Assembly (NCBI RefSeq): GCF_019175385.1
Contig: NC_083337.1
Location: 42,880,938-42,944,937, forward strand
Length of the DNA stretch: 64,000 bases
Direction of reading: 5' to 3'
DNA from: Lycium barbarum
Taxonomy: Eukaryota; Streptophyta; Magnoliopsida; Solanales; Solanaceae
Both the position numbers and the translations under genes were made by a program. Below, in pieces: positions 1-61,263 of the stretch (position 1 is the first letter of the stretch; each line of letters starts with the position of its first letter). Below the pieces are notes generated by a model. The model ran no database searches, was not told where the DNA came from, and was given only the letters and a program-made list of their open reading frames with translations.

Positions 1-964
1 ATTGTGAAATGCAGGTGATGTAGATGAATGATGATTGTTGCCTATTATATTGTGACAGTTGTTATGGATGTTTGGGAGTTGATACATGATAGGGTGAAAG
101 TAGTATAAACAAAGGAAACGCTGCCCAATTTTCTTTAGCTTTAATAAGCATGTTTAAGTAATCGATTAGCTAATGTTAATGCGAATTCTCTTGAAGGTAA
201 AAACGTGGGTATTGAAGGAGAACAAGCAATCGATTGATTTGTCAAACGAAAAAGGTATGTGAAGGTAGTGCTTTCTTTCTATGGCATGAATCCTATGGCA
301 TGATTTTTCCTTCTTCTCCACGAATCCTCTATACCCCGGAAAGCTAAGAATCTATCTTCATGAATAGCTACATGAGATAAGAGATACATTATAAGCCTAA
401 TAATGATGATGATGAGCTTAAGTGTAAAGATTCTAGAGTTCATGATATGATATTGCTACAAAGCTAATGATGTTGTTTACCGTATACACTCACCTTATAT
501 ACTATTTCCTTCAAGGTGAGGCAGAATGCTTATAAATGCTCCATAATTGAATCGGGGGTTCACGACCTTATGTCACCTCGATAAAGTATAGCTGTCTTTG
601 AGTTTCTACGCATGCATTATGATGAGTACATCTTGATGATATCACACCGCGCCTATATGGTCGGGCAGACACCGCTAAGGTGGGCAGCGTATACAGTTTG
701 TCTAGATAGCATGGCAGACACCACTAGTAGGCGGCATGAGATGGTACCCCGGACGCGAGAGGCCTAGACACAGGGTAATGATTATCACACCGTACCTATA
801 TGGACGGGCATCTTATACATTTATGCATATATGATATGATGACGATTATGAAGTAAGCCATCATGTATTATTTCTTTTATAAGTGATAGTCAGATACAAT
901 TGCTCCTTATTTGATGCTTCGTTTATCTCATTGACGTATTATTATTACCTATGCCTCTCATACT

Positions 965-1021
965 CAGTACAATGTTCGTACTGACGTCCGTTTTCTTTGG
1001 ACGTTGTGTTCATGCCCACAG
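965..1021 (+). other. LTR hairpin block, copy 1
   Basis: Stem 1 is CAGTAC-7 nt-GTACTG (965-983). Stem 2 is ACGTCC-9 nt-GGACGT. Stem 3 is TTGTG...CACAG, where most families have CTGCG...CGCAG, so one C-G pair has become T-A on both sides. The partner hairpin at 1142-1160 is GACGGG-7 nt-CCCGTC, a perfect stem. Confidence 0.7.
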
Positions 1022-1234
1022 GTAGACAGGGAGGTGAGCTTGATCCAGACTCGTAGGAGCTATTAGCTGACTTGAGAGCACTCCATTGTTCTAGAGGTGC
1101 CTTTGATTATTGTTTTGTGTACATATGTACATTTTGGGCACGACGGGGTTCTATCCCGTCCGTATGTCTAGTACTCTAGTAGAGGCTCGCAGATACGTAG
1201 GTGTGGGTTATATGGTCTTACGATGTTGCCATTG

Positions 1235-1433: not shown

Positions 1434-2706
1434 TATATGCATTGCACGCATTCTCTCATAATTATCATGCATGGCCGATACCCGATGATGATCCGGTATC
1501 GTTTATTGAGTGAAACTGATATGTGTTAAACACTTTTACTTGAGTGATTCTGAAAAAGGCCGATGTCCGCAGATCCATTCCGGAATCATTGTTTATACGA
1601 AACTAACACTTGATAAACTCTTTTACTTGAGTGATTTTGAGGAGGCCGATATCCGGGGTTCAATTCTGGAATCGCTGATATTTGACAACTCTTTTGAGTG
1701 ATTATGAGGAGGCCGATGTCCGATGGTATATTTGGGCATCGTTGTTGCATGCCCATTTCTGATGTTATGCCAGATTCGATTGTTGTGAATAGGCTCCGCG
1801 AGTCCCCCAAAGTGGTGCCGGTGAGACCCCCCTGTGAGCACCTAGCCAGGGTCTCGTCTATCTGTTTCGCAAAGATCCAGGACCGGTGACACTTAGACTT
1901 CGCGAGTCAAACTGGGTTGTGCTGCCGAGACGTCGATATTCCATCTGGAGTACATGTGTAGATCTCATTTTGCATAGCATGGCATGACATCACATTCATT
2001 CCATTATTGCATTGCATTGCATTATGACTTGTGTGAGATGTCGTGATGATTGTACTGTGACGATTTGTGGTGTTGATTCTATTGTGTTGCTGGTCCCAAG
2101 ATTGGATATACTCAGACTTATCATATTGGGGTTAGATACTTGCATAGGTGTTGATGGATACTCGATTATAATTGTACTGTTCCATGCGTGATTGATTTAC
2201 TTGTTTATCTGCATTATTTTCTGAATTGTGTTAACTATGCTTAGTCGGCCTATGATGCCTACCAGTACTGTTGTTTGTGTTGACCTGCACTTGCTGCATT
2301 CTTTTATGAATGCTGATTATCAGGCCAGATCTACTTCTCTGACTCGTGGCTGATCGACTCTTCAGCTTCTACTTGAGTTTTCTAGGGTGAGCATGGCGTC
2401 CGCGGACCTCGAAGACTCATCTTTTGCTTATGTCTTACTTTCACTCAAGACATGATTTGAGACATTTATGTATTTTTATTCAGAACTTAATATTAGGATT
2501 TTTGATGCTCTTGTATGACCAGACCAGATACTAGGGTGGATTCAGTTACTTCCGCACTTATCTATATTATATCATATTGTGAGACTTACGTCATTTACTT
2601 CTTCCACTATTTTATTATGTTTATTGATTGAGAACATTGAGTTAAGGGTTCGCCTATCGCGGTGGGAACGGTAGGTGCCCGAGCGAGCCCAAAATGGGTC
2701 GTGACG
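1434..2706 (+). mobile_element. LTR fragment of an E/K-like family
   Basis: This segment starts abruptly after the previous LTR and ends in AAAATGGGTCGTGACG at 2706. Just upstream is a reverse-complement-like version of the E and K termini (GGTTCGCCTAT...GTAGGTGCC). CTAGGGTGAGCATGG near 2383 also has a counterpart in K (57,790 region). It therefore reads as the 3' part of a plus-strand LTR interrupted by, or fused to, the LTR at 1-1433. No coding region is visible. Confidence 0.6.
1469..1745 (+). repeat. Imperfect tandem repeats of about 70-90 bp
   Basis: Four decayed units each contain a GGCCGATnnCCG core (about 1470, 1559, 1646 and 1710). Three of them are preceded by TTTT...GAGTGATT and separated by variants of CTGATA...ACAACTC. 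The units lie inside the LTR fragment, at the place where other LTRs here carry GC-rich tandem hairpins. Confidence 0.6.
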
Positions 2707-4215: not shown

Positions 4216-4289
4216 TTTCCAAAGTTGACTCCTACATTCTTCTTATCCTTTGAGTCTTGATATGTTGTTTCATTTCTTCCTTACATACT

Positions 4290-4349
4290 CAGTACATTAT
4301 TCGTAGTGACGTCCCTTTGCCTTGGGGCACTGTGTTTCGTGGTACACAG
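4290..4349 (+). other. LTR hairpin block, copy 2
   Basis: Stem 1 is CAGTAC-7 nt-GTAGTG, with one mismatch. Stem 2 is GTCCC-8 nt-GGGGC. Stem 3 is CTGTG-10 nt-CACAG, perfect and compensating relative to the usual CTGCG...CGCAG. The fourth hairpin at 4489-4507 is GTCGGG-7 nt-CCCGAC, a perfect stem that differs in both arms from copy 1. Confidence 0.7.
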
Positions 4350-4791
4350 GTGTGGATAGATGAGTAGAGGACACTCGCCATAGGATGCTCTCGAGCTATT
4401 AACTAGATTGGTGAACTCTATTTCTATTTCGAGTATTGCCGAGTCGGAATACATATGCATATATACGTGTCATATGCATTATGGGTATGTCGGGGCCCTG
4501 TCCCGACCTATGTTATGGTATCTTGGTTCATGTTAGAGACTTTGCAGACAGTGTTTTGGGCATGGTGTGTCGAGATGTCGGCAGTGTCTATAGCAGTCGT
4601 GTAGATCTGTTGATTCATCTGTATTCTTCACGAAAGGTTTTACCGAGTTTACGATAATTTGATAGCAAGCATGAAATGAATGGTTTATGGGCTCACGTAA
4701 GGATAATATAGGCGAAATGAATAGCATGGTGATGCTCGGTCAGGCAGAGCATTGGTTGTTGGTCGCGGTCCTTCGGTTTGGGTCATGACAT

Positions 4792-17641: not shown

Positions 17642-20600
17642 TGTCACGACCCAACCCCGTAGGCCGCGACTGGCACCCTACTTAGGCACCCCAAACAGAC
17701 TCACAAACCAGATCATCATATTCAGACTCATTCAGACTTAACATACGTTATTCGAACTGAAAACTAATAGCAGACGTTACACAAGCATTGAACAAACACT
17801 TATCTTAAGCGGTCGCCCGTGCAGGACAGTCATATCAAAATCAGAAAGGTGGCGGAATATACATCGCCCAAATGCACACACACACACGTACAAACTTATG
17901 GGCCGTCTTGGCCATAATAGCATACGGGCCGCTTAAGAACGTAAAACAGAACCACATACGAACACACCGGACCCACGACCCACAAATATGACTACAGGCC
18001 TCTAAAACAAAACAGAACATACGAACATATGACGGGACAGGGCCCCGCCGTACCCACACAGCCACAAATGCACAGAATCCACACACAGCAAAAGGTATGT
18101 ACCAAAGGTTAAGCTCCGGATCAAGGGGAGCTCGCCCAAAATAGCAGAATAGGTAGCCTAAACCGGAGGATCACCCAAACGAGCTTCTATACCTGCGGGC
18201 ATGAAACGCAGCCCCCCCGAAGAACAGGGGGTCAGTACGGGAGAAGTACTGAGTATGTAAAGCAGAAGGTACAGAAATCACAATCCTAACTGGAGTCAGA
18301 AGGAACAAACACAAACGTCAAAGTAGCAAATCAAGCCTGTACGGAAGATAAATGTACAAATTCAAATAAAAAATCATGTATAGGGCTTAGGAACGTGGTC
18401 ACCCCCGACGCTGGTGCCACAACACATCATACTCCAGAAGTTTTTTTCAAATCTCCGTACAGTCTCCAGACAAATCGTATCACACACATACCACATCATC
18501 AGAACATATCAAATGCCATATCACATCATAACTCCATAGACGGTAACCGGCCCTATGGCGAGGCCTCGGAAACCATAACACATCATACTTCCGAATATGG
18601 TATAGCACGTACGAGCACAAAGCCGGCTCGGGTACCGACGAACGAAATCATAGCGAATGGCACGAACGGAGTAGTGCAGAAACCATATGCATATCAAAAG
18701 TAATTTACAAGACTCGACATATAATTACATATAGGCATATACCGACGCCAGAAGGCTCGGGGTAGGAGTCAGGGCGATCAAAATTTATATATGGAAGTTA
18801 CGAAGTTCCAAACTGCAAAACCTTTGAAAAGCAATTCACAGATCATTTTCCGAAAATCTAACATCATTCATAGTACAAAACGTTCAATAACGATACAGGA
18901 AATTTCAAACGGACCTTTGAGTCATAGGCAAATGATTACTGTTCATATCGAACGAAAATGAGCCAAACAACCAAATAAGGGAAGCCTCGGGGCTTGCGGG
19001 CCCACCTTGAGTCAAATCGAGGCGGCGGACACAAATCACAGACTTTAGGCTCCATAAAGCCATCTACGAAAGTTTCGGAGAGATTCGGACACAATAGCAA
19101 AAGTTATGAAGGTTTGAACATTCTTTCAACCAAATGTAAGGAATAGGCTTCAATTGCGCTGAATGAATAGTAGCCAAAATTAAACTTGGATTTCCAAGAA
19201 CAGAATTATCCCCGAGGGTCCGATCTTAACCTAGTATAACTAGGACATGCCAAAAGAAGGAAAGGTAGGCTTTACATACCTGGATTGCGCCTTACGCTCG
19301 TCAAATCTCAATTCCCGTTTCGTCCAAAAACTGCAAATGGTCACTTTTACCAGTTACTATTCATGAAAGTTAATATCTTAGTCTTTGGGCTATACATGGC
19401 TACCAAAATTTCGGCAGCATTTCCCCTATAAATCTAACACCCCCGAGACTTAGCTCGGCTCAAAATACATCAACAACAACAACCCAAACATCATCAAACA
19501 ACATAAACCACAATCAAGTCATTCTAACTTTAAAGTTCTGCCTTACTACACAAGTTGACAACTTTCATTCAAACTTCACAATTCCAAACTTATGCCCACA
19601 TTATTGTATTCATTCACCCATTCAAGATTATTCAAACCCATCCCAATTACACTCCAAACAATATACAAAATTTCCCGAAGTTCATTACTTTCCATATTTC
19701 ATCCAAAACATCAAAAACTTACGGCGAACATTCTAACTCGCATTGTTTCATTCCAAATTCATTAACATCATCCATAAGTCACATTTAAAGTCTTTTAGTA
19801 TCATAGATATACAGCGATATACACGAATATGCCAAAGGTATATACTTTCCGATAATGTTCCGAAATCATTTTTCAACACCAATTCAATTCGTTAAACGAT
19901 CATTTACGTCACAAATGTCACAACGACGCAATAAACAAACTAAACAAGATCAAATTCACACTTCTTTCTCCTTCTTAGGCACACGACCACAACACCTTAT
20001 ACACACACACCCACGGTTTTCTACACACATCAAAACTACGGGATTCTCGTCTATTCTCAATCCTTAACACATTCATACCAATTCCATAACATTTGAGGGT
20101 AAAAATTCTTACCTTTTCTTGAATTTCCGACTTGCCGCAAACGCGTACCTTTCGCCAAATTAATTATACCTCGTTGAAGAGGGTCTTGAGTACTTTACAA
20201 ATATGGGAGAATCAAGATACTTGGATTAGAATCAAAGGCTTGGGATTTTTTTTTTTTTTTTGGAAAGGGGTTCGGCCGAAGGGCTCCTAGAGCTCAAAGT
20301 TGAAGTTGAAATTTTTTCTTGATAATTTCCAAGTATTACATTGATATATATATCCATATAGAGGTCATGTGCATAGCACATGACTTTTAAAAGTGGGCTT
20401 GGCCCATGCCTAGTGGCCGGCCACCCCACCTCTTTGGGCCCAAATTTTTATTTCAATTTCCTTGGCCCAATTCATTAAAAGTCCCGTTTTGTAATTCCCG
20501 AAACTAATTTCCGAAATTCCAAATTTACCCTCGGCCTTCCCCGATGTCTTAACATTAATGATTTCATAACCAACATAGTCACATCAACTAGAATCAAAAT

Positions 20601-20669
20601 ATTCCCTCATAACACACAAGTCTTAATCATTTCTTGATTTCCAATTATACGAAAACACGGGACATAACA
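17642..20669 (-). mobile_element. D 3' LTR
   Basis: On the plus strand it runs TGTCACGACCC...GACATAACA, hence TGTTATGTC...GTGACA in element orientation. From its 5' end it carries a TATA-like TATATATAT (about 20343-20352), a donor-like AAGGTAAGAATTTTT (about 20103-20117), a CAAAATTTCGGCAGC variant of the GCTGCCGAAATTTCGG block (19405 region), a second donor-like AGGTATGTAAAG (about 19269-19281), the hairpin block (18193-18251) and the fourth hairpin (18031-18049). Confidence 0.92.
18193..18251 (-). other. LTR hairpin block, copy 3 (D 3' LTR)
   Basis: Stem 1 is CAGTAC-7 nt-GTACTG. Stem 2 is CCCCC...GGGGG, replacing the CGTCC...GGACG pair seen in A and B, so both arms changed together. Stem 3 is CTGCG-9 nt-CGCAG. 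The fourth hairpin is at 18031-18049 (GGCGGG-7 nt-CCCGTC on the element strand, one G-U pair). Confidence 0.7.
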
Positions 20670-20705
20670 TTCTCCCCCCCTTAAGAACATTCGTCCTCGA
20701 ATGTT
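20670..20705 (-). promoter_or_regulatory. D polypurine tract and upstream palindrome
   Basis: In element orientation the palindrome AACATTCGAGGACGAATGTT (20686-20705) is followed by AAGGGGGGGAGAA and then the LTR start. The purine run is the expected second-strand primer. The 8-bp inverted repeat with an AGGA centre recurs at the same place in A, B and J. Confidence 0.85.
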
Positions 20706-21004
20706 AAGTTGACCTCATGGGGCGTCATACTACTTCGGAAGGGTTCTCTTTATAGTCGTCCTTTGTTGATTTTTCCGACATGGCTTCTTCACCAACATTA
20801 TGGGGTAATTAATTTTTTTCACATCACTGATTCAAATGCCTTCTCATACCCCACCTGGTTATCGGACCATAGACTGTATTCTCGTAACAGACGAATGCTT
20901 CTCAGACATTACAATTAACATCGCTTCTAGCTACACTTCTGGGTTCCTTACCACATCGTCGTAATCTCACTTTACTTCACACCAGACACTTTATGCCAAA
21001 CAGA

Positions 21005-21380
21005 TTCAGAGCTAGGGTCGGACGCGTATAAGCATATCGGACGGATTCATAGTCAAAATCAGAGGTACGGAAGTATGTCAGACAAATCTGAGATCGGAGT
21101 CAGACATACAGAGAGGTATCCGACAGATTTGAAATCAGAATCAGATGTACAGAATTGTATCATACAGAGTCGTGATCAAAGTCAGACAGACCGAAATGTA
21201 TCAGACATACGGAGATGTATCAGACAGACGCGTGATCAAAATCAGACGCACAGAGGTGTGTCAGACAGAAACGTATTCAGAATCAGACGCACAAAAAAAT
21301 TCATCAGACGGGAACATAATCGAGCTCAGAAATACAGAGGCGTACTAGGCAGAGCCTTATCGGAATCGGGAGTGTAGAAG
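21005..21380 (-). repeat. Imperfect tandem repeats, about 48-bp unit
   Basis: Plus-strand units are built from GTATCAGACAGA, CGTGATCAAAATCAGAC and CACAGAGGTGTGTCAGAC words. The array is open in one plus frame (21075-21377), which reads as decayed 16-residue repeats such as QTRDQNQTHRGVSD. The frame runs antisense to the element and has no known match. I treat it as a DNA repeat. Confidence 0.6.
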
Positions 21381-21448
21381 TACAACAGATAGAATGTCGA
21401 ATTAGAATCAAATCGCTCCTATTAAGGCTCCAATGATTCATGAGAATT

Positions 21449-21469
21449 CCCCCCCCCCCCCCCCCCCCC
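21449..21469. repeat. Poly-C tract, 21 bases
   Basis: Homopolymer of C (G on the element strand), next to AATTC, inside the D noncoding stretch. Confidence 0.9.
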
Positions 21470-21873
21470 TTATTTTTTGTGAACTTGTTTGCCAAGTGGT
21501 CATACAAATTGTCTTGCGTGTCGCTCATCGGCTCCTTCAGAGGTTCCGCTTATTCACACTTCTTATTCTTCATCACTCACAGTATTATTCGCCTGGACTC
21601 GGCTCTTGTTCCATATGGACACCAAACGAAAATCATACACACACACATACACACACTTACTAATACCTTACTGGCGAATGTCTCAGACTGTTGTTCAAAT
21701 TCGTTCAATTTCCCAAGCGGTAGTGTACCCTTTTCTTTTTGCCCATTTAGTCCGCCTCGTTCTGCGTGACTCCTGTCAGGGCATTAATTACCCCACACAT
21801 TTTATTTTCCTTTTGGTTACTCCAAATTTCCATTCATATTTATCATACTCTCACTTGTGAAAAACTTTGCATT

Positions 21874-21927
21874 ACTTCCCAGGGGGTCACCCATCCCAGA
21901 ATTGCTCTGGCTTGAGCACGCTTAACC
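21874..21927 (-). promoter_or_regulatory. 5S rRNA-derived segment with Pol III boxes (D)
   Basis: On the element strand it reads GGTTAAGCGTGCTCAAGCC, then GAGCAATTCTGG, then GATGGGTGACCCCCTGGGAA. This follows plant 5S rRNA from about position 47 to 100, through box A, the intermediate element and box C. The box C stretch is unchanged from what I recall of plant 5S. A TTTTT run, a possible Pol III stop, lies 9 bases downstream (AAAAA at 21860-21864 on plus). Confidence 0.8.
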
Positions 21928-22270
21928 CCGAAACTTTCATGCATTTTGACGCGTTAGGGCTGATATAATTTCGTCAATTGCCCCGCACGACCTTTGTCAC
22001 GTAATTTTGGGGCCAATCGGGGTCTTAGAAAAAAAAATTCGGGAAGTTTTCGTAGTGGGTCCCACTCCGACCCAAAGAGGTCGTTTGCTCTTCTGGCTAT
22101 ATGGTTTATCGCTTTAGCCTGTCAAATTCCCTATATTCGCCTCCCACATGAATAGATGGCTGCCTCAAATATTTTCATTGATTCGGATTCTTACCCTACT
22201 TTTACTGACACGCAGAAAGAGAATATCGCGTAATATACTGGAGTACAGACCTATCGGTGCACATATTCAT

Positions 22271-23722
22271 TCAAAAAAAGGTTAGTAATATACCTGGGTC
22301 TGCGTCTGGTGATGCCTCTGGGTCCCGCCGACCAGTCAAAGCGTATATGCGGTTCGAGGGACCGCTAGAATCTGAACCCCCACCACGGCCTCTACCGCAG
22401 CCCGCTGGGGCTGGCATACCTCGCCCCGTGGAGCGCGTGGCCGAAGGGGTAGATGGCGAACCAGCAACGGATCTCGTCGGCTGTGCTGCGCTACCAGAAC
22501 CGCCTGCCCACGGACAGTCTCGCATGATATAGCCCTGGCGGCCGCAAGCAAAACAGGCCCCTGTGTCCCTGAAGCACTCACCTGGGTGCGATCTTCCACA
22601 ATACAAACACGGAGGCATAGGTGGCCTAGTCTGACCGGGACCCCTGCTCGCCTGAGGACCTGGGGCTCTGGAACTCTGGTCTGCCCTGGACGGTCCTGCG
22701 CCATCAAATCGCTTACTAGCAGACTGGGTGTCCCGGCCTAACGGAGGGAAGTACCCACTGGCCTGATAGTGAGGCTGCCCGCCCCGAGAATCTCCAGAAT
22801 ACCCCGCTGATCTGGTCCTCTTGGGCCGTCTCCCATCATACTCTCTGCTGGCCCGATCTGCTCGGTGCCGGTTCTCCATCCCCTGGGCGTAGGCCTGTAG
22901 ACGGGCAATGTCCATATCTGTCTGCAATGACACCGCCATACAGCCGTCGATCAAGTAACGATCCAACCCCATAACATATCTATGCATCCGATCAGACATA
23001 TCTGCTACCACGGCAGGTGCATACCGGGCCAGGGAATCAAACTCCAGATTATATTCACGAACGCTTCGACCCCTCTGCTGCAGATGAAAAAACCGATCAG
23101 CTCGCTCCCGTCGTAACTCTGGGGGCAGAAAGTGGCGGGTGAAAGCAGTCACAAACTGATCCCACGTAGCTGGAGGAGCACTGTCACCCCTGGATAACTC
23201 CCAAGTCTCATACCAGTGAGCGGCAACATCCCGAAGTCTATGCGAGGCCAGCTCAACCGACTCGGTCTCTGAAGCCCTGACCAAGTCTAATGCACTCCGC
23301 ATCCCCCGAATAAAGTCATGGGGGTCCTCGTCGGGCTTAGACCCGAAAAACTCTGGAGGGCCACATAATAAGAACTCCCGAACTCTCAGGCTGTCCCGCC
23401 TGTCATCATCATCATCGTCCCTCCGCCCGCGTCGGCGAGCCTGTCCTGCCACCAGTGTAGTTAGCAACTGTACAGCCTCCCTCAGGGTCCTATCCTCCGC
23501 CCCTGGCTGAGGAGCTGGAGTCTCAGGAGCGGGTACACGGACCTCTGGAGCTGCTGAAGGTCCTGCTCCAGGCTGTACTAGTGGGGGTGTAGCAAACCCC
23601 TCAGAATGAGGCACAACCTCAGGCAAATCATAAACACGAGCCCGGGTAGCTCGCTGTGCCTGACTAGTCTCTCCCATCCTCGCTTTGCCCTTCTGGGCCG
23701 CCGTTGCCTTCTTCGGAGGCAT
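22271..23722 (-). CDS. D gag polyprotein (intact, gag only)
   Basis: Gag forms the virus-like particle and binds the element RNA. The frame is fully open for 483 codons. I start at MPPKKATAAQKG (23722), which matches the gag starts of A (MPPKR) and B (MPKKK); four codons upstream are also open. The retrotransposon gag core lies at ~115-265 (EFFGSKPDEDPHDFI, TESVELASHRLRD, LARYAPAVVADMSDR). A basic, glycine-rich linker follows, with a short knuckle CLYCGRSHPGEC (~372-383) and a second knuckle CFACGRQGYIMRDC (~390-403). In the second knuckle the zinc-binding His is Tyr (TAT for CAT). The frame stops just after IYALTGR...PGILLTFF, where the protease would begin in B. It is the only long undamaged coding region in the window. 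Confidence 0.9.
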   Translation of the reverse strand: MPPKKATAAQKGKARMGETSQAQRATRARVYDLPEVVPHSEGFATPPLVQPGAGPSAAPEVRVPAPETPAPQPGAEDRTLREAVQLLTTLVAGQARRRGRRDDDDDDRRDSLRVREFLLCGPPEFFGSKPDEDPHDFIRGMRSALDLVRASETESVELASHRLRDVAAHWYETWELSRGDSAPPATWDQFVTAFTRHFLPPELRRERADRFFHLQQRGRSVREYNLEFDSLARYAPAVVADMSDRMHRYVMGLDRYLIDGCMAVSLQTDMDIARLQAYAQGMENRHRADRASREYDGRRPKRTRSAGYSGDSRGGQPHYQASGYFPPLGRDTQSASKRFDGAGPSRADQSSRAPGPQASRGPGQTRPPMPPCLYCGRSHPGECFRDTGACFACGRQGYIMRDCPWAGGSGSAAQPTRSVAGSPSTPSATRSTGRGMPAPAGCGRGRGGGSDSSGPSNRIYALTGRRDPEASPDADPGILLTFF

Positions 23723-23926
23723 CACTGCAAACACAATAGCGGGTCAGATCAGAATCACCCTAATAGCACAGCTCTATCGCACGATCTAAGATTCCAAAGA
23801 AGAGTAACACCCTAAATGCCCTGTAGCTTCCTGTTTATAGATGAGGTGCACAACACATCGATAAACAAGACTCTACGAGACACGGCCTGTAGACATTCCA
23901 AGGAAAAACCGCTCTGATACCACTTC
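23723..23926 (-). promoter_or_regulatory. D leader with initiator-Met tRNA primer site
   Basis: Directly after the 5' LTR comes GAAG, then TGGTATCAGAGC (23911-23922 on plus), complementary to the 3' end of initiator tRNA-Met. The leader down to gag shares blocks with A and B: CCGTGTCT-GTAGAGTCTTG-TTAT, TATAAACAGGA, GGGCATTTAGG and GATCGTGCGATAGAGCT. Its conservation suggests a packaging or dimerisation role. Confidence 0.85.
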
Positions 23927-26900
23927 TGTCACGACCCAACCCCGTGGGCCCCGACTGGCACCCTACTTAGGCACCCCAAACAGACTCACAAACCAGATCA
24001 TCATATTCAGACTCATTCAGACTTAACATACGTTATTCGAACTGAAAACTAATAGCAGACGTTACACAAGCATTGAACAAACACTTATCTTAAGCGGTCG
24101 CCCGTGCAGGACAGTCATATCAAAATCAGAAAGGTGGCGGAATATACATCGCCCAAATGCACACACACACACGTACAAACTTATGGGCCGTCTTGGCCAT
24201 AATAGCATACGGGCCGCTTAAGAACGTAAAACAGAACCACATACGAACACACCGGACCCACGACCCACAAATATGACTACAGGCCTCTAAAACAAAACAG
24301 AACATACGAACATATGACGGGACAGGGCCCCGCCGTACCCACACAGCCACAAATGCACAGAATCCACACACAGCAAAAGGTATGTACCAAAGGTTAAGCT
24401 CCGGATCAAGGGGAGCTCGCCCAAAATAGCAGAATAGGTAGCCTAAACCGGAGGATCACCCAAACGAGCTTCTATACCTGCGGGCATGAAACGCAGCCCC
24501 CCCGAAGAACAGGGGGTCAGTACGGGAGAAGTACTGAGTATGTAAAGCAGAAGGTACAGAAATCACAATCCTAACTGGAGTCAGAAGGAACAAACACAAA
24601 CGTCAAAGTAGAAAATCAAGCCTGTACGGAAGATAAATGTACAAATTCAAATAAAAATCATGTATAGGGCTTAGGAACGTGGTCACCCCCGATGCTGGTG
24701 CCACAACACATCATACTCCAGAAGTTTTTTTCAAATCTCCGTACAGTCTCCAGACAAAACGTATCACACACATACCACATCATCAGAACATATCAAATGC
24801 CATATCACATCATAACTCCATAGACGGTAACCGGCCCTATGGCGAGGCCTCGGAAACCGTAACACATCATACTTCCGAATATGGTATAGCGCGTACGAGC
24901 ACAAAGCCGGCTCGGGTATCGACGAACGAAATCATAGCGAATGGCACGAACGGAGTAGTGCAGAAACTATATGCATATCAAAAGTAATTTACAAGACTGG
25001 ACATATAATTACATATAGGCATATACCGACGCCAGAAGACTCGGGGTAGGAGTCAGGGCGATCAAAATTTATATATGGAAGTTACGAAGTTCCAAACTGC
25101 AAAACCATTGAAAAGCAATTCACAGATCATTTTCCGAAAATCTAACATCATTCATAGTACAAAACGTTCAATAACGATACAGGAAATTTCAAACGGACCG
25201 TTGAGTCATAGGCAAATGATTACTATTCATATCGAACGAAAATGAGCCAAACCACCAAATAAGGGAAGCCTCGGGGCTTGCGGGCCCGCCTTGAGTCAAA
25301 TCGAGGCGGCGGACACAAATCACAGACTTTAGGCTCCATAAAGCCATCTACGAAAGTTTCGGAGAGATTCAGACACAATAGCAAAAGTTATGAAGGTTTG
25401 AACATTCTTTCAACCAAATGTAAGGAATAGGCTTCAATTGCGCTGAATGAATAGTGGCCAAAATTAAACTTGGATTTCCAAGAACAGAATTATCCCCGAG
25501 GGTCCGATCTTAACCTAGTATAACTAGGACATGCCAAAAGAAGGAAAGGTAGGCTTTACATACCTGGATTGCGCCTTACGCTCGTCAAATCTCAATTCCC
25601 GTTTCGTCCAAAAACTGCAAATGGTCACTTTTACCAGTTACTATTCATGAAAGTTAACATCTTAGTCTTTGGGCTATACTTGGCTACCGAAATTTCGGCA
25701 GCATTTTCCCTATAAATCTAACACCCCCGAGACTTAGCTCGGCTCAAAATACATCAACAACAACAACCCAAACATCATCAAACAACATAAACCACAATCA
25801 AGTCATTCTAACTTTAAAGTTCTACCTTACTACACAAGTTGACAACTTTCATTCAAACTTCACAATTCCAAACTTATGCCCACATTATTGTATTCATTCA
25901 CCCATTCAAGATTATTCAAACCAATCCCAATTACACTCCAAACAATATACAAAATTTCCCGAAGTTCATTACTTTCCATATTTCATCCAAAACATCAAAA
26001 ACTTACGGCGAATATTCTAACTCGCATTGTTTCATTCCAAATTCATTAACATCAACCATAAGTCACATTTAAAGTCTTTTAGTATCATAGATATACAGCG
26101 ATATACACAAATATGCCAAAGGTATATACTTTCCGATAATGTTCCGAAATCATTTTTCAACACCAATTCAATTCGTTAAACGATCATTTACGTCATAAAT
26201 GTCACAACGACGCAATAAACAAACTAAACAAGATCAAATTCACACTTCTTTCTCCTTCTTAGGCACACGACCACAACACCTTATACACACACACCCACGG
26301 TTTTCTACACACATCAAAACTACGAGATTCTCGTCTATTCTCAATCCTTAACACATTCATACCAATTCCATAACATTTGAGGGGCAAAATTCTTACCTTT
26401 CCTTGAATTTACGACTTGCCGCAAACGCGTACCTTTCGCCAAATTAATTATACCCCGTTGAAGAGGGTCTTGAGTACTTTACAAATATGGGAGAATTAAG
26501 ATACTTAGATTAGAATCAAAGGCTTGGGAATTTTTGTTTTTGGAAAGGGGTTCGGCCGAAGGGCTCCTAGAGCTCAAAGTTGAAGTTGAAATTTTTTCTT
26601 GATAATTTCCAAGTATTACATTGATATATATCCATATAGAGGTCATGTGCATAGCACATGACTTTTAAAAGTGGGCTTGGCCCATGCCTAGTGGCCGGCC
26701 ACCCCACCTCTTTGGGCCCAAATTTTTATTTCAATTTCCTTGGCCCAATTCATTAAAAGTCCCGTTTTGTAATTCCCGAAACTAATTTCGGAAATTCCAA
26801 ATTTAACCTCGGCCTTCCCCGATGTCTTAACATTAATGATTTCATAACCAACATAGTCACATCAACTAGAATCAAAATATTCCCTCATAACACACAAGTC

Positions 26901-26947
26901 TTAATCATTTCTTGATTTCCAATTATACGAAAACACGGGACATAACA
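23927..26947 (-). mobile_element. D 5' LTR
   Basis: Same order of elements as the 3' LTR, including the hairpin block (24478-24536) and fourth hairpin (24316-24334). It keeps the exact CCGAAATTTCGGCAGC form (about 25686) where the other copy has CAAAATTTCGG. Differences between the two LTRs are sparse single bases and short indels, for example in the poly-T near 20248 versus 26530. Confidence 0.92.
24478..24536 (-). other. LTR hairpin block, copy 4 (D 5' LTR)
   Basis: Same as copy 3: CAGTAC-7 nt-GTACTG, then the CCCCC...GGGGG stem, then CTGCG...CGCAG. Fourth hairpin at 24316-24334. Confidence 0.7.
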
Positions 26948-28483: not shown

Positions 28484-28549
28484 GTCCTATGCTAATTCAT
28501 ATGTTGTTCATGATGCTTATTTATTGATGTTGCTCATGCTTTACATACT

Positions 28550-28607
28550 CAGTACATTCTTCGTACTGACGTCCCTTTTATTTGTGGACGCTGCGTCATG
28601 CGCGCAG
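28550..28607 (+). other. LTR hairpin block, copy 5 (B 5' LTR)
   Basis: CAGTAC-7 nt-GTACTG, CGTCC...GGACG and CTGCG...CGCAG, all perfect. The fourth hairpin at 28728-28746 is AGCGGG-GTCCTGT-CCCGCT, a perfect stem with its own base pairs. Confidence 0.72.
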
Positions 28608-29051
28608 GTGCACAGGAAGACAGACTTGATCCATAGCTTCCTATAACGAGATTACATAGAGAGCTCCATTTCCTTCGGAGCCATATCTTTTGGGTACTCA
28701 TTCTTTTGTGTATAAAATTATGGGCATAGCGGGGTCCTGTCCCGCTAAAGTGATATGTTATACTCTTAGAGGCTCGTGGACATGTGTGTGGGTGGGTAGA
28801 TGTGTTTGGCCTTGTCGGCCTATGTTTTGTATATCATTTTGTCGGCCACGTTGGCCCATGTACATTGATGTGGCATAGATGCCTATGATGATATAAGTGT
28901 GTTGTTGTCCAAATGGGACTAGTTGGCGAATGAATGGAAATGCATGTATAATTAGGTGGCTCACCTAGATGTAAGCAAAAGAGTAAGCTGAGAGGGTGCC
29001 CGGGTGGGCTAGCGCCGGGTGCTCGTCGCGGCCCCGAGTCGGGTCGTGACA

Positions 29052-29261
29052 AAAGTGGTATCAGAGCAGTTCAGTCCTAGGATGTGTCTACGACCCGTGT
29101 CTAGTAGAGTCTTGGTTATGGGTGTGTTTCGTACCACACTTATAAACAAGAAGCTGCGGACATTTTAGGAATATATGACCTTCTTTCTTCATAAGAATCG
29201 TGCGATAGAGCTATGATGTAAGAAATTCTTGTTCCTAAATCGTGTGTTGTGTATTTGAGAG
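29052..29261 (+). promoter_or_regulatory. B leader with initiator-Met tRNA primer site
   Basis: The LTR end is followed by AAAG and TGGTATCAGAGC (29056-29067). The leader then carries GTGTCTAGTAGAGTCTTGG, CTTATAAACAAGA and ATCGTGCGATAGAGCTATG before the gag start at 29262. The same blocks in the same order occur in A (32951-33163) and D. Confidence 0.88.
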
Positions 29262-29430: not shown

Positions 29431-32400
29431 TGTTATATCCTGTATTTTATACGTTCGGATATTCCAAGGTAGTCGTGACGAAGTTGAGGGAATGACCATT
29501 TCCCAAATGTACTTCAATGTACAAGTGGATTATAAATATTATTTACAACATTAGTATCATGGAAATAACATGGATGGTTAAGGACGAAACGGTAATTTCA
29601 CAAGGTGTTCATGAAGGTTCTTGAAAGGCCATAGTGGTTATGTACCCTATGTGGACTAAGACTTACATAAGAAGACACTTAGTCTTCTTTATTCATTTTT
29701 GAGAAAACTCAAGAAAATGGGAGAAAATTTTAGAAAAGAAAGAAAGGAGGGCTAAGTGTGAATTACAAAAATTATATGGGCCAAAGGTTGCATGGAAAGA
29801 CATTAGTCTTCCTTATTTAGACTTAAGGAAATTCAAGAAAAAGGAGGAATTTTCTAGAAAAGAATGGAAGGGGTCATGTAGTCATATTTTTGTGTTGAGG
29901 GACTTATTCATAAATATGGAAAAAAATGGGTGGAAGACTTGTAAAAAGTTATTCCAATATTCATTATTTCTCTAGAAATTTCAAGAGAGTGAAGAACAAA
30001 AAGAAGAGGAGAAAAACAAGAAGGCATTTCGGCCAAGAGGAAAACAATTCCAAGAAAATTTCAAAAAAAATCTTCAAAATCATTTCCTACCAATTAGAGG
30101 GTCCTTAACAAGGTGGAGTTGTTGTTGGAGCAAGAAAAGCTTATATTCTTTCAAGCTACAAAATATAGCCAAGTGAAGAGTTGAAGCAAGAAGGTAAGAA
30201 TTCATCCTTTTCTTATGTGTTATGGATGTTGTGCATGTTGTAGTGTGTAAAATGAGTGAAATTTATGGAGAATAAGAATGTAAGGGTGTGGCCGTGTGTA
30301 CCTAGGTAGATGTAGGAAATTATGTTTAATTATTGTGTCTAGCATTGGGTTGTTATTGTTGTGAATGTTATGTCGATAAGAGAAGTTGAATGATTTTGGA
30401 GAGGTTGTAGTTATGAACGCATGATGGTGGCCGTGTGGTATATTGTATGTATAAACATGTGTATGTGTTGAATGGTGGAAGAAGATGAGCTAATTTTATT
30501 TAGTGTTTTGGTTGTTGTTGTATCGTGGATACTATGTTGTTAATGAATGCATAATAATCTTGTGAAGTTGTAGAAGTTGGAGACTTGTGATTGAGGTATT
30601 TAAATTGAATATTATGTTCTTGTATGTATGGAGGATAATGTTGTTAGTATGGTATTGTTGGCATATGAATTATAATGTTCTTATTGGAGTTGGAAAGTTT
30701 TTGGAAGAAGAAGTAAATTGATTGAATATGGAAATTGTTAGTATTGTTGTTGGCATTGTTGTTGAATTATGTTAATAGTTTGGCCGGGTTTGAATTCCCG
30801 GATTGTGTTTGACGAGAATTTGACTAAATTGAATGTCGAGGATGGTATATTTACAGAGGAGGTGCTGCCGAAATTTCGGTAGCCAAGTATTACCTTAAGA
30901 TTTCAACTCTAAGTATCCTAATGAGAGTTTTGGGTAAAATTGACCAATTTGCAGATTTCGACGAGATTGCAACGTGAATTTGGAATAGCTAAAGGAGCGG
31001 AAAAAGGTATGTAAGGCTTCACCCTTCTTTCTATGGCATGTCTTGGATGTAATAAGTCGGTTACGAGCCTCGGGGACAACCCTATTCCCCGGAATCCGCA
31101 CCTAAAGTTTTCCACTTTTTGTTCAATAGAATTGAACTAGAAAATGTGCAAATGGTAGAAAGACCTCCTAAACCTCTAGAAGTTGCATAAATGGGACCCG
31201 ATTACCCTAGAACCCTCACATGTAATGCGAAGACATGTAACATATGTAAATCGTACACGCTACCTCATCCGGCCCGAGGTGGGCCTGTTACTCTCGGATT
31301 TTCCTTACAGTCTTGCTTGACTTACTTGAAGTGAATCCAAAGGGAACCTTTGATCCCGATTTCGTTACCAACTGATAAGTACTATGACTCCTCTAACGAG
31401 GGCACTTCCATGACGATAATGATAACAATGATGTTAGATAAGAGGATATGCCTATGATACGTACTACCGGAACGACTCTATGACTAAGATGACTAAGCTA
31501 AGTAACTTATGTAAACATGAAAAAGATAAACTAATTTTTGAATCTTATTTATATTTCCTAGCTATGACTTTATTTTCTAAAGATTTCAAAGTCTATGAAC
31601 TGTCATCTATGATGCCCACGATTTCATTCTACGTTTACTTTAATATTATTCTCCGTTGATAGTCTCACCTTAAAATACTCGTTCCTTCAAGGTGAGACAA
31701 AGCGATCACGAGTATTCTATAATGTAATCGGAGGTTACCGACTTTATGTCACTCCGATAGACGTAACTTTCCTTGGACGCCCGTGCATGCTGGTTATATG
31801 ATACAGGGATATGTGTATGGACATGTATAGGTATATAGGACAAGTATTTGTATATAAGACATGTATATGTATAATAGAGAAGTGAATGTACACGTATATG
31901 TATATGGGGAAAGGGGAAGGGCCACTGTTATATCACCACCTGATTCAACTGGATTTCATCCTGGACGCGGGATATGGGAGAGCCATACGCGGCGTCTGTA
32001 TATATATATAATGTATGATATACATGATATGATGTGTTGGGACACCGTTGGGGAGGGGGGTTGGGAGAGCCGATGTATTCGGCGTCTGTAAATGTGAGTA
32101 AAAGATACCGTTTACTGAATTGTACTGTTTTTTGTATATGAGAATAAGGGACACCGTGTTCTGAAAAAGGGGCTATGCTATGACATGATACGCTATGCCA
32201 AAATATACTATAATATGAGAAGCTACGACATGACATAATACGACACGCTATGATAGGGCAGGATACAATATGATAAAACATGACACGATATAAATCCAAT
32301 TTTCTGTGTCTACGAGAAAGAAATGTCTCAAAGAGAAAAGGACAAGCCTACATGATAGCCGGCCTGAAACAGAGGCCTTCCCACGTACAGGTTACTTTCC

Positions 32401-32950
32401 TGCCTCCTTATATGTCCTATGACTCCATGATATTATTAATCGTACTCTATGTTACTGTTTATATTATCTTTTATGCCTTACATACTCGGTACACTATTCG
32501 TACTGACGTCCCTTCTTGTGGACGCTGCGTTTCATGCCGCGCAGGTCAGTAGACAGGTGGACTTGATCCTTAGGAGCTCTACCAGCGGTACTCTACAGCG
32601 CTCTAGTTGTCCCGGAGTCTCACTTCAGTGGTACTATTTTGTGTATGTATTCTCGGGCACGACAGTACTCGGCCCTTTCTATGTGTAAATGTACTATGTC
32701 TAGAGGCTCGTAGACAGATAGGTACAGTCAGTCAGGTACAGGTATATGCATGGTGTCTCGGCATGATTGTTGTATAAAGTAATAACGAAGTTTACTAGTT
32801 CATGTTCAGAATGACGCTGCTAATATTAATGTTCAAAAAAAAAAGTGGCTCTGTTTACTCGGCTTGCTAAGAGGTAAAGGTAATATGATAGACAAGGGGT
32901 GCTCGGTACAAGTATCGGGTACTCGTCACGGCCCTAGTTGGGTCGTGACA
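29431..32950 (+). mobile_element. A 5' LTR
   Basis: TGTTATATCC...GGTCGTGACA. Ordered marks: donor-like AAGGTAAGAATTC (about 30191), CTGCCGAAATTTCGGTAG (about 30865), second donor-like GGTATGTAAGG (31006), hairpin block (32487-32544). About three mismatches to the 3' LTR occur in the first 200 bases and they are sparse elsewhere, so A is among the younger insertions. Confidence 0.93.
32487..32544 (+). other. LTR hairpin block, copy 6 (A 5' LTR)
   Basis: CGGTAC-7 nt-GTACTG (one G-U pair), CGTCC...GGACG, CTGCG...CGCAG. The usual fourth hairpin is not clearly present. The equivalent place (about 32655-32678) reads GGGCACGACAGTACTCGGCCC, a different weak stem. Confidence 0.68.
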
Positions 32951-33163
32951 GAAGTGGTATCAGAGCAGTTCGGTCCTAGGGGTTTGTCTACAAGCCGTGT
33001 CTAGTAGAGTCTTGTTTATGGGTGTGTAGCGCGCCACGCTTATAAACAGGAGACTACAGGGCATTTAGGAAATATGACCTTCTTTGTGTCCTAAGATCGT
33101 GCGATAGAGCTATGCTATCAGGCTTCCACATTCCTTTCCTAATCCTATGCTATGGTTTCAATA
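32951..33163 (+). promoter_or_regulatory. A leader with initiator-Met tRNA primer site
   Basis: GAAG then TGGTATCAGAGC at 32955-32966. It shares with B and D the blocks GTGTCTAGTAGAGTCTTG, CTTATAAACAGGAGACTACA, GGGCATTTAGG and GATCGTGCGATAGAGCTATG. Confidence 0.88.
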
Positions 33164-38300: not shown

Positions 38301-38906
38301 AGCCTACATGATAGCTGGCCTGAAACAGAGGCCTTCCCACGTACAGGTTACTTTCCTGCCTCGTTATATGTCCTATGACTCCATGATATTATTAATCGTA
38401 CTCTATGTTACTGTTTATATTATCTTTTATGCCTTACATACTCGGTACAGTATTCATACTGACGTCCCTTCTTGTGGACGCTGCATTTCATGCCGAGCAG
38501 GTTAGTAGACAGGTGGACTTGATCCTTAGGAGCTCTACCAGCGGTACTCTACAGCGCTCCAGTTGTCCCGGAGTCTCACTTCAGTGGTACTATTTTGTGT
38601 ATGTATTCTCGGGCACGACAGTACTCGGCCCTTTCTATGTGTAAATGTACTATGTCTAGAGGCTCGTAGACAGATAGGTACAGTCAGTCAGGTACAGGTA
38701 TATGTATGGTGTCTCGGCATGATTGTTGTATAAAGTAATAACGAAGTTTACTAGTTCATGTTCAGAATGACGTTGCTAATATTAATGTTCAAAAAAAAAA
38801 GTGGCTCTGTTTACTCGGCTTGCTAAGAGGTAAAGGTAATATGATAGACAAGGGGTGCTCGGTACAAGTATCGGGTACTCGTCACGGCCCTAGTCGGGTC
38901 GTGGCA
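35375..38906 (+). mobile_element. A 3' LTR
   Basis: TGTTATATCC...GTCGTGGCA. The last bases read GTGGCA where the 5' LTR has GTGACA, a post-insertion change in the terminal repeat. The donor-like site is also altered (AAAGTAATAATT near 36135 against AAGGTAAGAATT). It contains the hairpin block at 38443-38500. Confidence 0.93.
38443..38500 (+). other. LTR hairpin block, copy 7 (A 3' LTR)
   Basis: CGGTAC-7 nt-ATACTG, CGTCC...GGACG, CTGCA...AGCAG. Two stems have picked up a mismatch relative to the 5' LTR copy. Confidence 0.65.
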
Positions 38907-39300: not shown

Positions 39301-39743
39301 TGTCACGACCCAACCCCGCGGGCCGCGACTGGTACCCCAACTGGGTACCCATACGTACCTACCCGATCGAATTTCGAATCATACGGATTTTTTTTTTTTT
39401 TTTTTTTAAAACAAAAATTACAAAAGTAGGCCGATGCAAATACGGCACGCGCGCAACCATACGTATATATACATATATACCTGAACATACAGACATTTAC
39501 AAGTAAGCCGATAAGGCTAACATACAGACGAAACCCGTAACCCACACATCTATCTACAGGCCTCTACAGACATACAGAATCATATGACGGGATAGGGCCC
39601 CGCCGTACCCAGAATATACAGACATACAGAGCACACAAAGATAGAAGGTATATACCAAAGATATATGCTCCGAGTCAAAGGAGCTCTTCAAGTAGCAGAA
39701 TCGGAAACCTACGCGGGCGGCGTATCACCTGGTGCGTCTGTAC

Positions 39744-39799
39744 CTGCGGGCATGTAGCGCAGCCCCCGAAGAACGGGGGTCAGTACGAAAAATGTACCG
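39744..39799 (-). other. LTR hairpin block, copy 8 (C)
   Basis: Element strand: CGGTAC-7 nt-GTACTG, then CCCCCG-5 nt-CGGGGG (perfect 6 bp), then CTGCG...CGCAG. Fourth hairpin 39586-39604: GGCGGG-GCCCTAT-CCCGTC. Confidence 0.7.
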
Positions 39800-39834
39800 A
39801 GTATGTAAAGCAGAAACATAACAGATATAAACAT

Positions 39835-46933: not shown

Positions 46934-47185
46934 TGTTACACCTCGGAAAATTTTCCGTTGGTACGCAAGAGAATGAACTAATGATGAATATGAGTGCATG
47001 ATGTCCATGAGCAAGAAACGACGTTTGACGATCTTAGGCAAGATTTCGAAAGTATCCGATGTGAGACGAGGAAGTTGGCTAAGTTAAGATGAGATACAAG
47101 GTGAGCAATGCATGTGCATGGACGGGGTGATTAAAATGAGAAGTCTAAGAAATATGGGAAGTTGCAGAATTGCAACTGCCCAGTG

Positions 47186-47445
47186 GTCGTAAATCGCAAA
47201 ATACGGACCGTAAATTGTAATACGGTCCGTAAACTGGCAGTCTTAAACTGCCATGCAAGGTTTCAACTTTCTGCCAGCCGAGGAAATGGTTAAATACGAC
47301 CTGGTGGACTGACCGTAAAGTGATTTACGGCCCATAAACCATGGTCGTAAACCACCATGCAGGCAGCCCAGCTTCTGGTTCTGGAAATAGTTAAATACGC
47401 CCATGGAGGACGAGCCGTATAGTGGAATACGGTCCGTAAACCTCC
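47186..47445 (+). promoter_or_regulatory. Array of TACGGTCCGTA-type palindromes in B U3
   Basis: TACGGACCGTAAA, TACGGTCCGTAAACTG, CTGACCGTAAAG, TTACGGCCCATAAACC and ATACGGTCCGTAAACC occur within 260 bases, upstream of the ATTAAATAAAGGG TATA-like sequence (about 47488). The same array in the B 5' LTR is split by D. The position upstream of a promoter suggests binding sites. Confidence 0.55.
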
Positions 47446-48825: not shown

Positions 48826-48852
48826 CCCCCCCCCCCCCCCCCCCCCCCCCCC
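48826..48852. repeat. Poly-C tract in the B 3' LTR, 27 bases
   Basis: Counterpart of the 16-base tract at 28468-28483. Confidence 0.9.
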
Positions 48853-48917
48853 TCCTATGCTAATTCATATGTTGTTCATGATGCTTATTTATTGATGTTG
48901 CTCATGCTTTACATACT

Positions 48918-48975
48918 CAGTACATTCTTCGTACTGATGTCCCTTTTGTTTATGGACGCTGCGTCATGCCCGCAG
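48918..48975 (+). other. LTR hairpin block, copy 9 (B 3' LTR)
   Basis: CAGTAC-7 nt-GTACTG, TGTCC...GGACG (T-G pair where the 5' LTR has C-G), CTGCG...CGCAG. Fourth hairpin 49096-49114, perfect. Confidence 0.7.
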
Positions 48976-61142: not shown

Positions 61143-61263
61143 AGTATATAAAGCATGAAATACAATAAGAAGGATCATAGCTGAAGTAGAGATTACCAGA
61201 AACAAGTATAATAATCAAGAAATCACTATACTTGTGCCTTACGAAACAAAATCATACATATCA

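What the first reader, a model, noticed from the sequence alone, without database searches (positions are those of the whole stretch)
965..1160. Three-hairpin block plus fourth hairpin, conserved in eleven LTRs with compensating changes
The same 56-60 bp block occurs at 965, 4290, 28550, 32487, 38443 and 48918 (plus), and at 18193, 24478, 39744, 52887 and 61086 (minus). Stem 1 is always a 6-bp arm, 7-nt loop, 6-bp arm. Stem 2 is CGTCC/GGACG in some families and CCCCC/GGGGG in others. Stem 3 is CTGCG/CGCAG or CTGTG/CACAG. The fourth hairpin has arms GACGGG/CCCGTC, GTCGGG/CCCGAC or AGCGGG/CCCGCT around a loop like GTCCTGT. Paired changes in LTRs that otherwise differ point to a selected RNA structure, for example for packaging, 3' end formation, strand transfer or export. 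The function is inference.
Basis: partly seen in the sequence, partly recalled or inferred. Interest (0 to 1): 0.9.

Follow-up and report, generated by a model that had tools for sequence, protein, structure and literature searches.

The report
Conserved RNA folds in plant retrotransposons
Tens of thousands of jumping-gene end sequences in a plant genome, probably goji berry, carry the same small set of RNA hairpins, and sampled copies also show a matching long-distance RNA pairing next to the copying start site, both kept by paired mutations, which suggests an undescribed RNA control element these parasites use to copy themselves.

Summary
A covariance model finds exactly 11 copies of the three-hairpin block in the window (E ≤ 1.2e-15; next 0.63), from 8 lineages (C, D, E are LTR twins). 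The block is the only stretch matched in all 28 family pairs compared. The fourth hairpin is complete in 7 of 11.

The genome (1.67 Gb, probably Lycium barbarum) has 60,878 exact stem-1 hits, control 0. In 75 copies beside LTR/primer-site junctions plus 7 window copies, 96.7% of pair cells pair; shifted registers 27-50%. On a tree, 13 two-sided changes share a branch, 2.7 expected, 0/5000. G·U exceeds A·C, pointing to sense RNA.

New: an LTR motif after hairpin 4 pairs over 12 nt with the leader just 3' of the primer site. 36 distinct pairs covary (94.9% paired, shifts 26-46%), and a diverged second block type shows it on average. It resembles Ty1's R/post-PBS helix.

Most likely this is a cis-acting genomic-RNA platform for packaging and start of reverse transcription. 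Function and transcript ends are unshown.

The parts
957..1026 (+). block A: SL1 965-983, SL2 about 984-1003, SL3 1004-1021
1142..1160 (+). fourth hairpin of A (GACGGG/CCCGTC); LTR pairing motif at 1180-1195; LTR end at 1433
4282..4352 (+). block B (SL1 4290-4308, SL3 4330-4349; fourth hairpin 4489-4507; LTR motif 4534-4550)
28542..28610 (+). block C1 (SL1 28550-28568, SL3 28591-28607); fourth hairpin 28728-28746; LTR motif 28767-28782
29082..29096 (+). leader strand of the LTR-leader helix in element C, 3' of the PBS (29056)
48910..48978 (+). block C2 (3' LTR twin of C1); fourth hairpin 49096-49114; LTR motif 49135-49150
32479..32547 (+). block D1 (SL1 32487-32505, SL3 32525-32544); fourth hairpin 4 of 6 pairs; LTR motif 32701-32716
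32982..32996 (+). leader strand of the LTR-leader helix in element D, 3' of the PBS (32955)
38435..38503 (+). block D2 (3' LTR twin of D1); fourth hairpin 4 of 6 pairs; LTR motif 38657-38672
18190..18259 (-). block E1 (SL1 18251-18233, SL3 18211-18193); fourth hairpin 18049-18031; LTR motif 18004-17989
24475..24544 (-). block E2 (5' LTR twin of E1); fourth hairpin 24334-24316; LTR motif 24289-24274
23884..23896 (-). leader strand of the LTR-leader helix in element E, 3' of the PBS (23911-23922)
39741..39807 (-). block F (SL1 39799-39781, SL3 39762-39744); fourth hairpin 39604-39586; LTR motif 39566-39551
52884..52951 (-). block G (SL1 52943-52925, SL3 52903-52887); fourth hairpin 5 of 6 pairs; weak LTR motif 52723-52708
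61083..61150 (-). block H (SL1 61142-61124, SL3 61104-61086); fourth hairpin 5 of 6 pairs; LTR motif 60912-60897
2243..2320 (+). type II block: hairpins SL1 and SL3 without SL2, in a more diverged LTR
29431..32950 (+). 5' LTR of element D (twin 35375-38906); only a zinc-knuckle frame found inside; flanking CTCAG on both sides
17642..26947 (-). element E (LTRs 17642-20669 and 23927-26947) with a gag frame and no pol domain found, inserted in the 5' LTR of C
46934..49419 (+). 3' LTR of element C (5' LTR 17246-17641 plus 26948-29051); gag-pol frames 42446-46726

Best explanation
The block is part of a conserved cis-acting RNA fold on the sense transcript of a Ty3/gypsy retrotransposon lineage with long LTRs. 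[quoted passage not shown] Shown: the conservation, the covariation, the register specificity, the strand bias, and the retention in elements D and E, in which no pol domain was found. Inferred: that the fold works in the genomic RNA, where the helix sets up tRNA annealing and the start of reverse transcription (like the Ty1 R/post-PBS helix) and the hairpins mark the RNA for Gag (packaging or dimerisation). Parts: RNA structure on the sense strand about 0.9; LTR-leader helix real about 0.93; function in genomic-RNA replication rather than 3' processing or translation about 0.55-0.6.
For: SL1-3 in 82 rows (75 loci found through a LTR-end + PBS pattern, 7 window copies; 80 distinct): 96.7% of 1360 cells paired, 27-50% at slides, 100 double-change cells against 38 shuffled (0/500). 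Tree-aware: 13 same-branch two-sided changes over SL1-3 and the long helix against 2.7 expected, max 10 in 5000. Branch changes into G-U 58, into A-C 21; mutation background predicts .56-.57, observed .73, p = .0024 or .0009. LTR-leader helix: 36 distinct pairs from 73 loci, 94.9% of 432 cells paired at register 0, 26-46% at shifts of 1-4; 43 double-change cells, 1-20 at shifts; G-U 36, A-C 7; leaders dealt at random among the distinct pairs never reach it, 0/10000. Type II: hairpins 93.8% paired, slides 18-47%; helix energy -37.5 cognate, -34.1 permuted, 0/5000. The block region is the only stretch matched in all 28 family pairs compared. Elements D and E keep block, motif and leader strand. 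Unconstrained folds of 36 of 50 representatives give the helix (best 8 of its 12 pairs) mean probability 0.61, at least 0.5 in 22 of 36.
Against: No transcript ends were available, so presence of the block at the RNA 5' end is not shown. The 75 loci were taken from 100 junctions by a loose match to SL1 (at most 3 errors), so SL1 pairing is partly built in (SL2 and SL3 are not), and SL1 shows no double change; helix strands were located with loose patterns that are themselves complementary, which raises the paired percentage but not the covariation at the degenerate positions. One of the 13 same-branch changes (SL2 pair 1, C-G to A-A) breaks pairing. Random dealing of leaders does not keep relatedness (the slides and the tree test do). 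In type II the cognate leader ranks first in only 3 of 14. RNAalifold without guidance failed on the 82 rows and found only SL1 and SL3 on 34 dereplicated rows. Single-sequence folds of nine window copies gave z of -1.3 to -3.8 and all three hairpins together in 3 of 9. In 14 of 36 representatives the long helix has probability under 0.5. 11 of 100 junction loci lack a convincing SL1. Nothing here tests Gag binding, packaging or reverse transcription. Only one plant genome was held.
Confidence: 0.6

Rival explanations
1. The transcript starts downstream of the block (near hairpin 4), so SL1-SL3 lie in U3 and occur only near the 3' end of the RNA. There they would act in 3' end formation or stability, and the LTR motif of the 3' LTR would pair with the 5' leader and circularise the RNA, like Ty1 CYC5/CYC3.
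For: TATAWA occurs at +130..+230 from the block start in 32 of 50 representatives, against 5-21 of 50 in five other 100-nt windows. Poly(A)-signal-like AAT[AG]A[AT] occurs in 16 of 50, mostly 40-160 nt before the LTR end. The helix strand 3' of the PBS is placed like CYC5 (PMC4974528, passages).
Against: 18 of 50 lack TATAWA there. The 60 nt just upstream of the block are pyrimidine-rich and A-poor, as at plant start regions (composition; the reading is recalled). The motif could equally be in R, present at both ends.
Confidence: 0.25
2. The block is a DNA-level promoter or protein-binding dyad; complementary arms reflect symmetric binding sites.
For: SL1 is a 6-bp dyad with a 7-nt spacer in 11 of 11 window copies; it lies in a LTR that must hold a promoter.
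Against: Arms change sequence together (CGTCC/GGACG to CCCCC/GGGGG) with loop lengths free, and G-U is tolerated more than A-C, which DNA would not care about; the LTR-leader pairing joins strands on the two sides of the PBS.
Confidence: 0.06
3. The block mainly sets the context of splice sites: CAG|GT at the 3' edge of SL3 is used for splicing in element or host transcripts.
For: A Lycium barbarum gene model (P0001) begins its LTR homology exactly at CAG|GTG after SL3; CAGGT is conserved in 10 of 11 window copies.
Against: One gene model only; the genome search for its exons did not complete. It does not explain SL1, SL2 or the LTR-leader helix.
Confidence: 0.05
4. Shared ancestry alone: related LTRs look alike and the pairing is a by-product.
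For: Families are related, many copies are decayed, and many double changes in SL2 and SL3 trace to few branches.
Against: Slid registers and the branch-placement null keep relatedness and do not reproduce it.
Confidence: 0.03

Closest known systems
Yeast Ty1 5' R / post-PBS helix (nt 1-7 with 264-270), part of the Ty1 5' pseudoknot
   Same: An LTR-derived segment pairs with sequence downstream of the primer site; in Ty1 it is required for efficient start of reverse transcription (PMC4974528, passages read).
   Different: Ty1 is a copia-type element (recalled); its helix is 7 bp and starts at the RNA 5' end. Here 12 nt, with three main sequence versions that covary; no pseudoknot or function shown.
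Ty1 CYC5/CYC3 and Ty3 bipartite PBS (RNA cyclisation)
   Same: CYC5 lies downstream of the PBS and pairs with a sequence at the RNA 3' end (PMC4974528, passages).
   Different: Here the LTR strand exists in both LTRs and which copy is used is unknown.
Ty3 dimerisation site and structured 5' end
   Same: Cis signals sit in the structured 5' end of a Ty3 genomic RNA (PMC11381356, passages, one of them from the abstract).
   Different: Ty3 uses a 6-nt palindrome in the top of a hairpin; SL3 loops here share only CAUG in most rows.
BARE1/BARE2 of barley: packaging and dimerisation signals in a parasite element
   Same: A Gag-less element with conserved packaging and dimerisation signals is packaged in trans (PMC3735527, passages); here elements D and E keep the block, motif and leader strand.
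   Different: Copia superfamily; no covariation-supported fold in the passages read.
Conserved stem-loops in long R regions of LTRs
   Same: A HMM survey of LTRs links residual conservation in long R regions to stem-loops (PMC3601003, passages).
   Different: That remark concerns retroviral groups; plant elements of this lineage were not among the models named in the passages.
Retroviral leader RNAs (HIV-1 TAR, DIS/SL1, psi; U5-leader pairing)
   Same: Tandem hairpins and U5/leader pairing around the PBS (recalled).
   Different: No Rfam match in the window; different hosts and lineage.

Membership tests
Ty3/gypsy LTR retrotransposons | paired LTRs with TG...CA ends, tRNA PBS after the 5' LTR | tested here: met
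   TGTTA starts and GTGACA ends (GTGGCA in D2), TGGTATCAGAGC after a 4-nt gap in elements C, D, E
Ty3/gypsy LTR retrotransposons | PR-RT-RNaseH-IN order | tested here: met
   RVP_2, RVT_1, RNaseH, Integrase_H2C2, rve, SH3_Tf2-1 in this order in L234; same domains over the two window frames 42446-46726
Tekay/Del chromoviruses | chromodomain after the integrase | tested here: not met
   No Pfam Chromo match in the type I pol frames, though the other element at 7664-12560 has one. The clade name is therefore not given; long LTRs only suggest it (recalled)
Ty1-like R/post-PBS helix | LTR segment complementary to sequence 3' of the PBS, kept by covariation | tested here: met
   (type I); on average also type II
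Ty1-like R/post-PBS helix | LTR strand at the RNA 5' end (R) | not testable with these tools
   no transcript ends
Ty1-like R/post-PBS helix | needed for start of reverse transcription | not testable with these tools
   needs an experiment
Ty1 CYC5/CYC3 cyclisation | LTR strand supplied by the 3' end of the RNA | not testable with these tools
   transcript ends unknown
Retroviral packaging/dimerisation signal | Gag binding and kissing-loop palindrome | tested here: inconclusive
   SL3 loop has a 4-nt palindrome CATG in most rows; Gag binding not testable
Any described RNA family in Rfam 15 | match above the gathering score | tested here: not met
   0 matches in the window
Hammerhead retrozymes | hammerhead ribozyme in the LTR | tested here: not met
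   no Rfam match in the window

The most novel reading that the evidence does not exclude
The LTR-leader helix is an identity lock. Each family carries its own matching pair of codes (CTC/GAG, CCT/AGG, TCT/AGA in type I; unrelated versions in type II), so that only an RNA holding both the cognate LTR segment and leader adopts the form that is packaged and primed. Together with SL1-SL3 it would be an old RNA platform that decides which of many thousands of autonomous and non-autonomous copies can be mobilised.
Probability: 0.2. Interest if true: 0.82.

Novelty: new variant of a known kind. Interest (0 to 1): 0.62.

Why it matters
Cis-acting RNA signals of plant Ty3/gypsy elements, which make up much of many plant genomes, seem hardly described (my searches found none). 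Here a compact fold and a long-range helix are supported by covariation in a sample of a very abundant family, and can be probed directly. If the helix works as in Ty1, it would extend a rule of reverse-transcription start from a yeast element to plant elements of another superfamily. It would also give a sequence-readable criterion for which defective copies can still be mobilised in trans.

Tried and rejected
Closing stem that would make SL1-SL3 a four-way junction (ATAC with GTAT): inspected by eye only, some copies pair; not counted. Hammerhead/retrozyme: no Rfam hit. Prokaryote contigs: one hit in Exiguobacterium, taken as chance from the pattern length, not examined. Protein search with the frame over block G: none at E ≤ 0.01. 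Literature: none of six block strings occurs in the held papers; no plant paper on such a fold was seen in the listings. Transcription start from TATA and poly(A) motifs: unresolved. My reading of A-runs as poly(A) traces was dropped: loci with 7 or more A are 3 of 50; a notebook line says 14 of 50 because the bins counted start positions, not loci. Complementarity in the three window elements alone was not above chance. Fourth hairpin in genomic type I loci: anchor found in 62 of 73, all six pairs in 45 of those 62; 26 distinct arm pairs average 5.15 of 6 against 4.83 shuffled, 0/5000 (the best-scoring anchor was taken). SL4 was counted with a loose pattern (71 of 73) without a chance control; some matches look spurious. 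Genome-wide SL3 counts: CTGCG/CGCAG 63,713 and CTGTG/CGCAG 4,890 (pattern controls 45 and 183); the two CACAG counts, which would complete the strand test, did not complete.

Full report
1. Where it lies. The window is plant DNA with nested Ty3/gypsy elements; LTRs measured in three elements are 2.5-3.5 kb, begin TGTTA and end GGGTCGTGACA (GTGGCA in one), followed by a tRNA-iMet-type primer site (the tRNA name is recalled). The genome held for it has 1.67 Gb. Its first contig has 171,831,605 bases; a protein that is 92% identical over 36 residues to a window LTR frame is annotated in Lycium barbarum on a contig of 171,835,435 bases, so the plant is probably goji. Element C (gag-pol domains), D (only a zinc-knuckle frame found) and E (a gag frame, no pol domain found, minus strand) are nested; twin LTRs are 95-98% identical.

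2. The observation. All 11 blocks exist, and at E up to 1 the model R1 finds no others but one hit at 0.63 (R1 was trained on 75 genomic loci and 7 of the 11 copies). They are 8 lineages. Per-copy pairing is: SL1 6 of 6 in 8 of 11, SL2 (best nearby register) 5 of 5 in 10 of 11, SL3 5 of 5 in 10 of 11, fourth hairpin 6 of 6 in 7 of 11. A sensitive pairwise comparison of one LTR per family (upstream parts of A and B cut short, boundaries of F, G and H not known) finds a match at the block in all 28 pairs, in every pair covering at least -1..+35; outside the bins -50..+99 at most four other families match a given 50-nt bin. The blocks lie 471-647 nt before the LTR end.

3. More copies. The stem-1 pattern has 30,364 + 30,514 exact hits (control 0). 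To avoid choosing by structure I took the first 100 listed places of a LTR-end + PBS pattern (13,199 + 13,422 hits, control 0), fetched. By a loose match to the SL1 stretch within 900 nt, 75 of 100 carry the type I block (among them L137 with SL2 and SL3 lost, and L195 with the block 895 nt up), 14 a type II block, and 11 no convincing SL1. Of those 11, L133 and L220 keep SL3, the fourth hairpin and the motif, and L181, L217 and L223 keep a fourth hairpin and motif. Because rows were accepted through SL1, pairing in SL1 is partly built in; SL2, SL3 and the long helix are not.

4. Covariation of SL1-SL3. 82 rows (75 loci + 7 window copies; 80 distinct): 96.7% of 1360 cells paired, 100 double-change cells against 38 after shuffling (0/500); slides 27-50% paired with 2-9 double cells; the number of pairs with any double change (3) is not above shuffling (335/500). 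SL2 position 2 has G-C 37, C-G 35, A-U 2, U-A 1; SL2 position 3 C-G 39, U-A 38; SL3 position 4 C-G 48, U-A 23. On a FastTree tree of 72 loci made from LTR and leader sequence without the block and the leader strand (the LTR strand was left in), joint parsimony gives 14 compensating double events over SL1-3 and the long helix. With each side scored alone, 13 two-sided changes share a branch, against 2.7 (sd 1.6, max 10) when right-side events are placed at random by branch length (0/5000); one of the 13 (SL2 position 1) breaks pairing. Contrary: RNAalifold on the 82 rows proposes one other small hairpin; on 34 rows below 90% identity it finds SL1 and SL3; on the 11 window rows it finds all four.

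5. Which strand. In the tree, 58 changes lead into G·U and 21 into A·C. Rates of the same base changes in the tree alignment predict 0.56-0.57 for G·U; observed 0.73 (p = 0.0024 or 0.0009). In raw cells the block has G·U 44, A·C 18 and the long helix 36 and 7. DNA-level pairing predicts no such excess, and antisense RNA the opposite.

6. A new part: the LTR-leader helix. After the fourth hairpin the LTR has TAGA + GGCTCGTAGACA (or GGCCTG..., GGTCTG...). 31-35 nt after the LTR end, directly 3' of the PBS, the leader has the complement TGTCTACGAGCC (or CAGGCC, CAGACC). In 73 loci where both strands were located by loose patterns (75 type I minus L195 and L215) there are 36 distinct pairs: 11.39 of 12 paired, against 10.71 with leaders dealt at random (max 11.08 in 10,000); at shifts of 1-4, 26-46% paired against 94.9%, with 1-20 double-change cells against 43. 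Position 3: C-G 22, U-A 10; position 4: C-G 17, U-A 16; position 5: U-A 21, C-G 13. In the window, C, D and E show it (by my count 12-14 of 13-15 paired), though in single elements such scores are not above chance. In the 14 type II loci the mean cognate duplex energy is -37.5 against -34.1 with leaders permuted (0/5000), with different sequences; the cognate leader ranks first in only 3 of 14. In unconstrained folds of 36 of the 50 representatives the helix (best 8 of 12 pairs) has mean probability 0.61, at least 0.5 in 22.

7. Type II. These LTRs have SL1 and a longer SL3 but no SL2: 15 rows (14 loci + window 2243-2320), 93.8% paired, slides 18-47%, 10 double cells against 3.6 (2/500). How far type II stands from type I is not settled: in four type II loci fetched downstream (L230-L233), the RNaseH-integrase part of L230 is 57% identical to the type I pol of L234, a stretch in L231 is 37%, L232 has a weak hit and L233 none; nested elements were not excluded. 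The chromodomain element in the window is 31-37% identical to type I, and R1 has no hit in it.

8. What it probably does. Shown: selected sense-strand RNA structure, tied to LTR and leader, retained in elements in which no pol was found. Inferred: action in the genomic RNA. The closest worked example is Ty1, where R nt 1-7 pair with 264-270 downstream of the PBS and are needed for efficient start of reverse transcription, and CYC5/CYC3 join the ends (PMC4974528, passages). Structured 5' ends with dimerisation signals are described for Ty3 (PMC11381356, passages), and packaging of a Gag-less parasite for BARE2 (PMC3735527, passages). I therefore favour: long helix = priming or strand-transfer architecture; SL1-SL3 and the fourth hairpin = recognition by Gag (packaging or dimerisation). 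Whether the block is at the RNA 5' end (R) or only near its 3' end (U3) is open: pyrimidine-rich sequence precedes the block, but TATAWA lies downstream of it in 32 of 50 representatives, and poly(A)-signal-like hexamers, present in 16 of 50, gather mostly 40-160 nt before the LTR end.

9. Novelty. No Rfam family matches in the window; six strings of the block are absent from the held papers; the other nine literature searches answered showed no description in their listings. The kind (cis-acting retroelement leader RNA) is known; this fold and its covarying LTR-leader codes appear undescribed in what I could search.

Noticed in passing
   Followed up: yes
window 4515-7129 and 12543-15158: A 2.6-kb direct repeat (97% identical) flanks a minus-strand chromodomain element; both copies include the 3' end of the opposite-strand LTR B, so the repeat may not be a plain LTR pair.
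   Followed up: partly
window 48973-49113: A Lycium barbarum gene model (P0001) matches this LTR and its homology starts exactly at CAG|GTG after SL3, as if a splice acceptor in the LTR were used.
   Followed up: partly
window 28807-28819 (C1), and further downstream parts of LTRs C, F, G, H: Repeated short GCC-TTGTC-GGC hairpins downstream of the fourth hairpin.
   Followed up: no
proteins P0002-P0004: Short ENA contigs (525-814 bp) from unnamed samples encode the block in protein space, suggesting copies elsewhere.
   Followed up: partly
window about 39388-39407 (F, minus) and 32835-32844 (D1, plus): Runs of 10-20 A about 107-116 nt before the LTR end; runs of 7 or more A were found in only 3 of 50 representatives.
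   Followed up: partly
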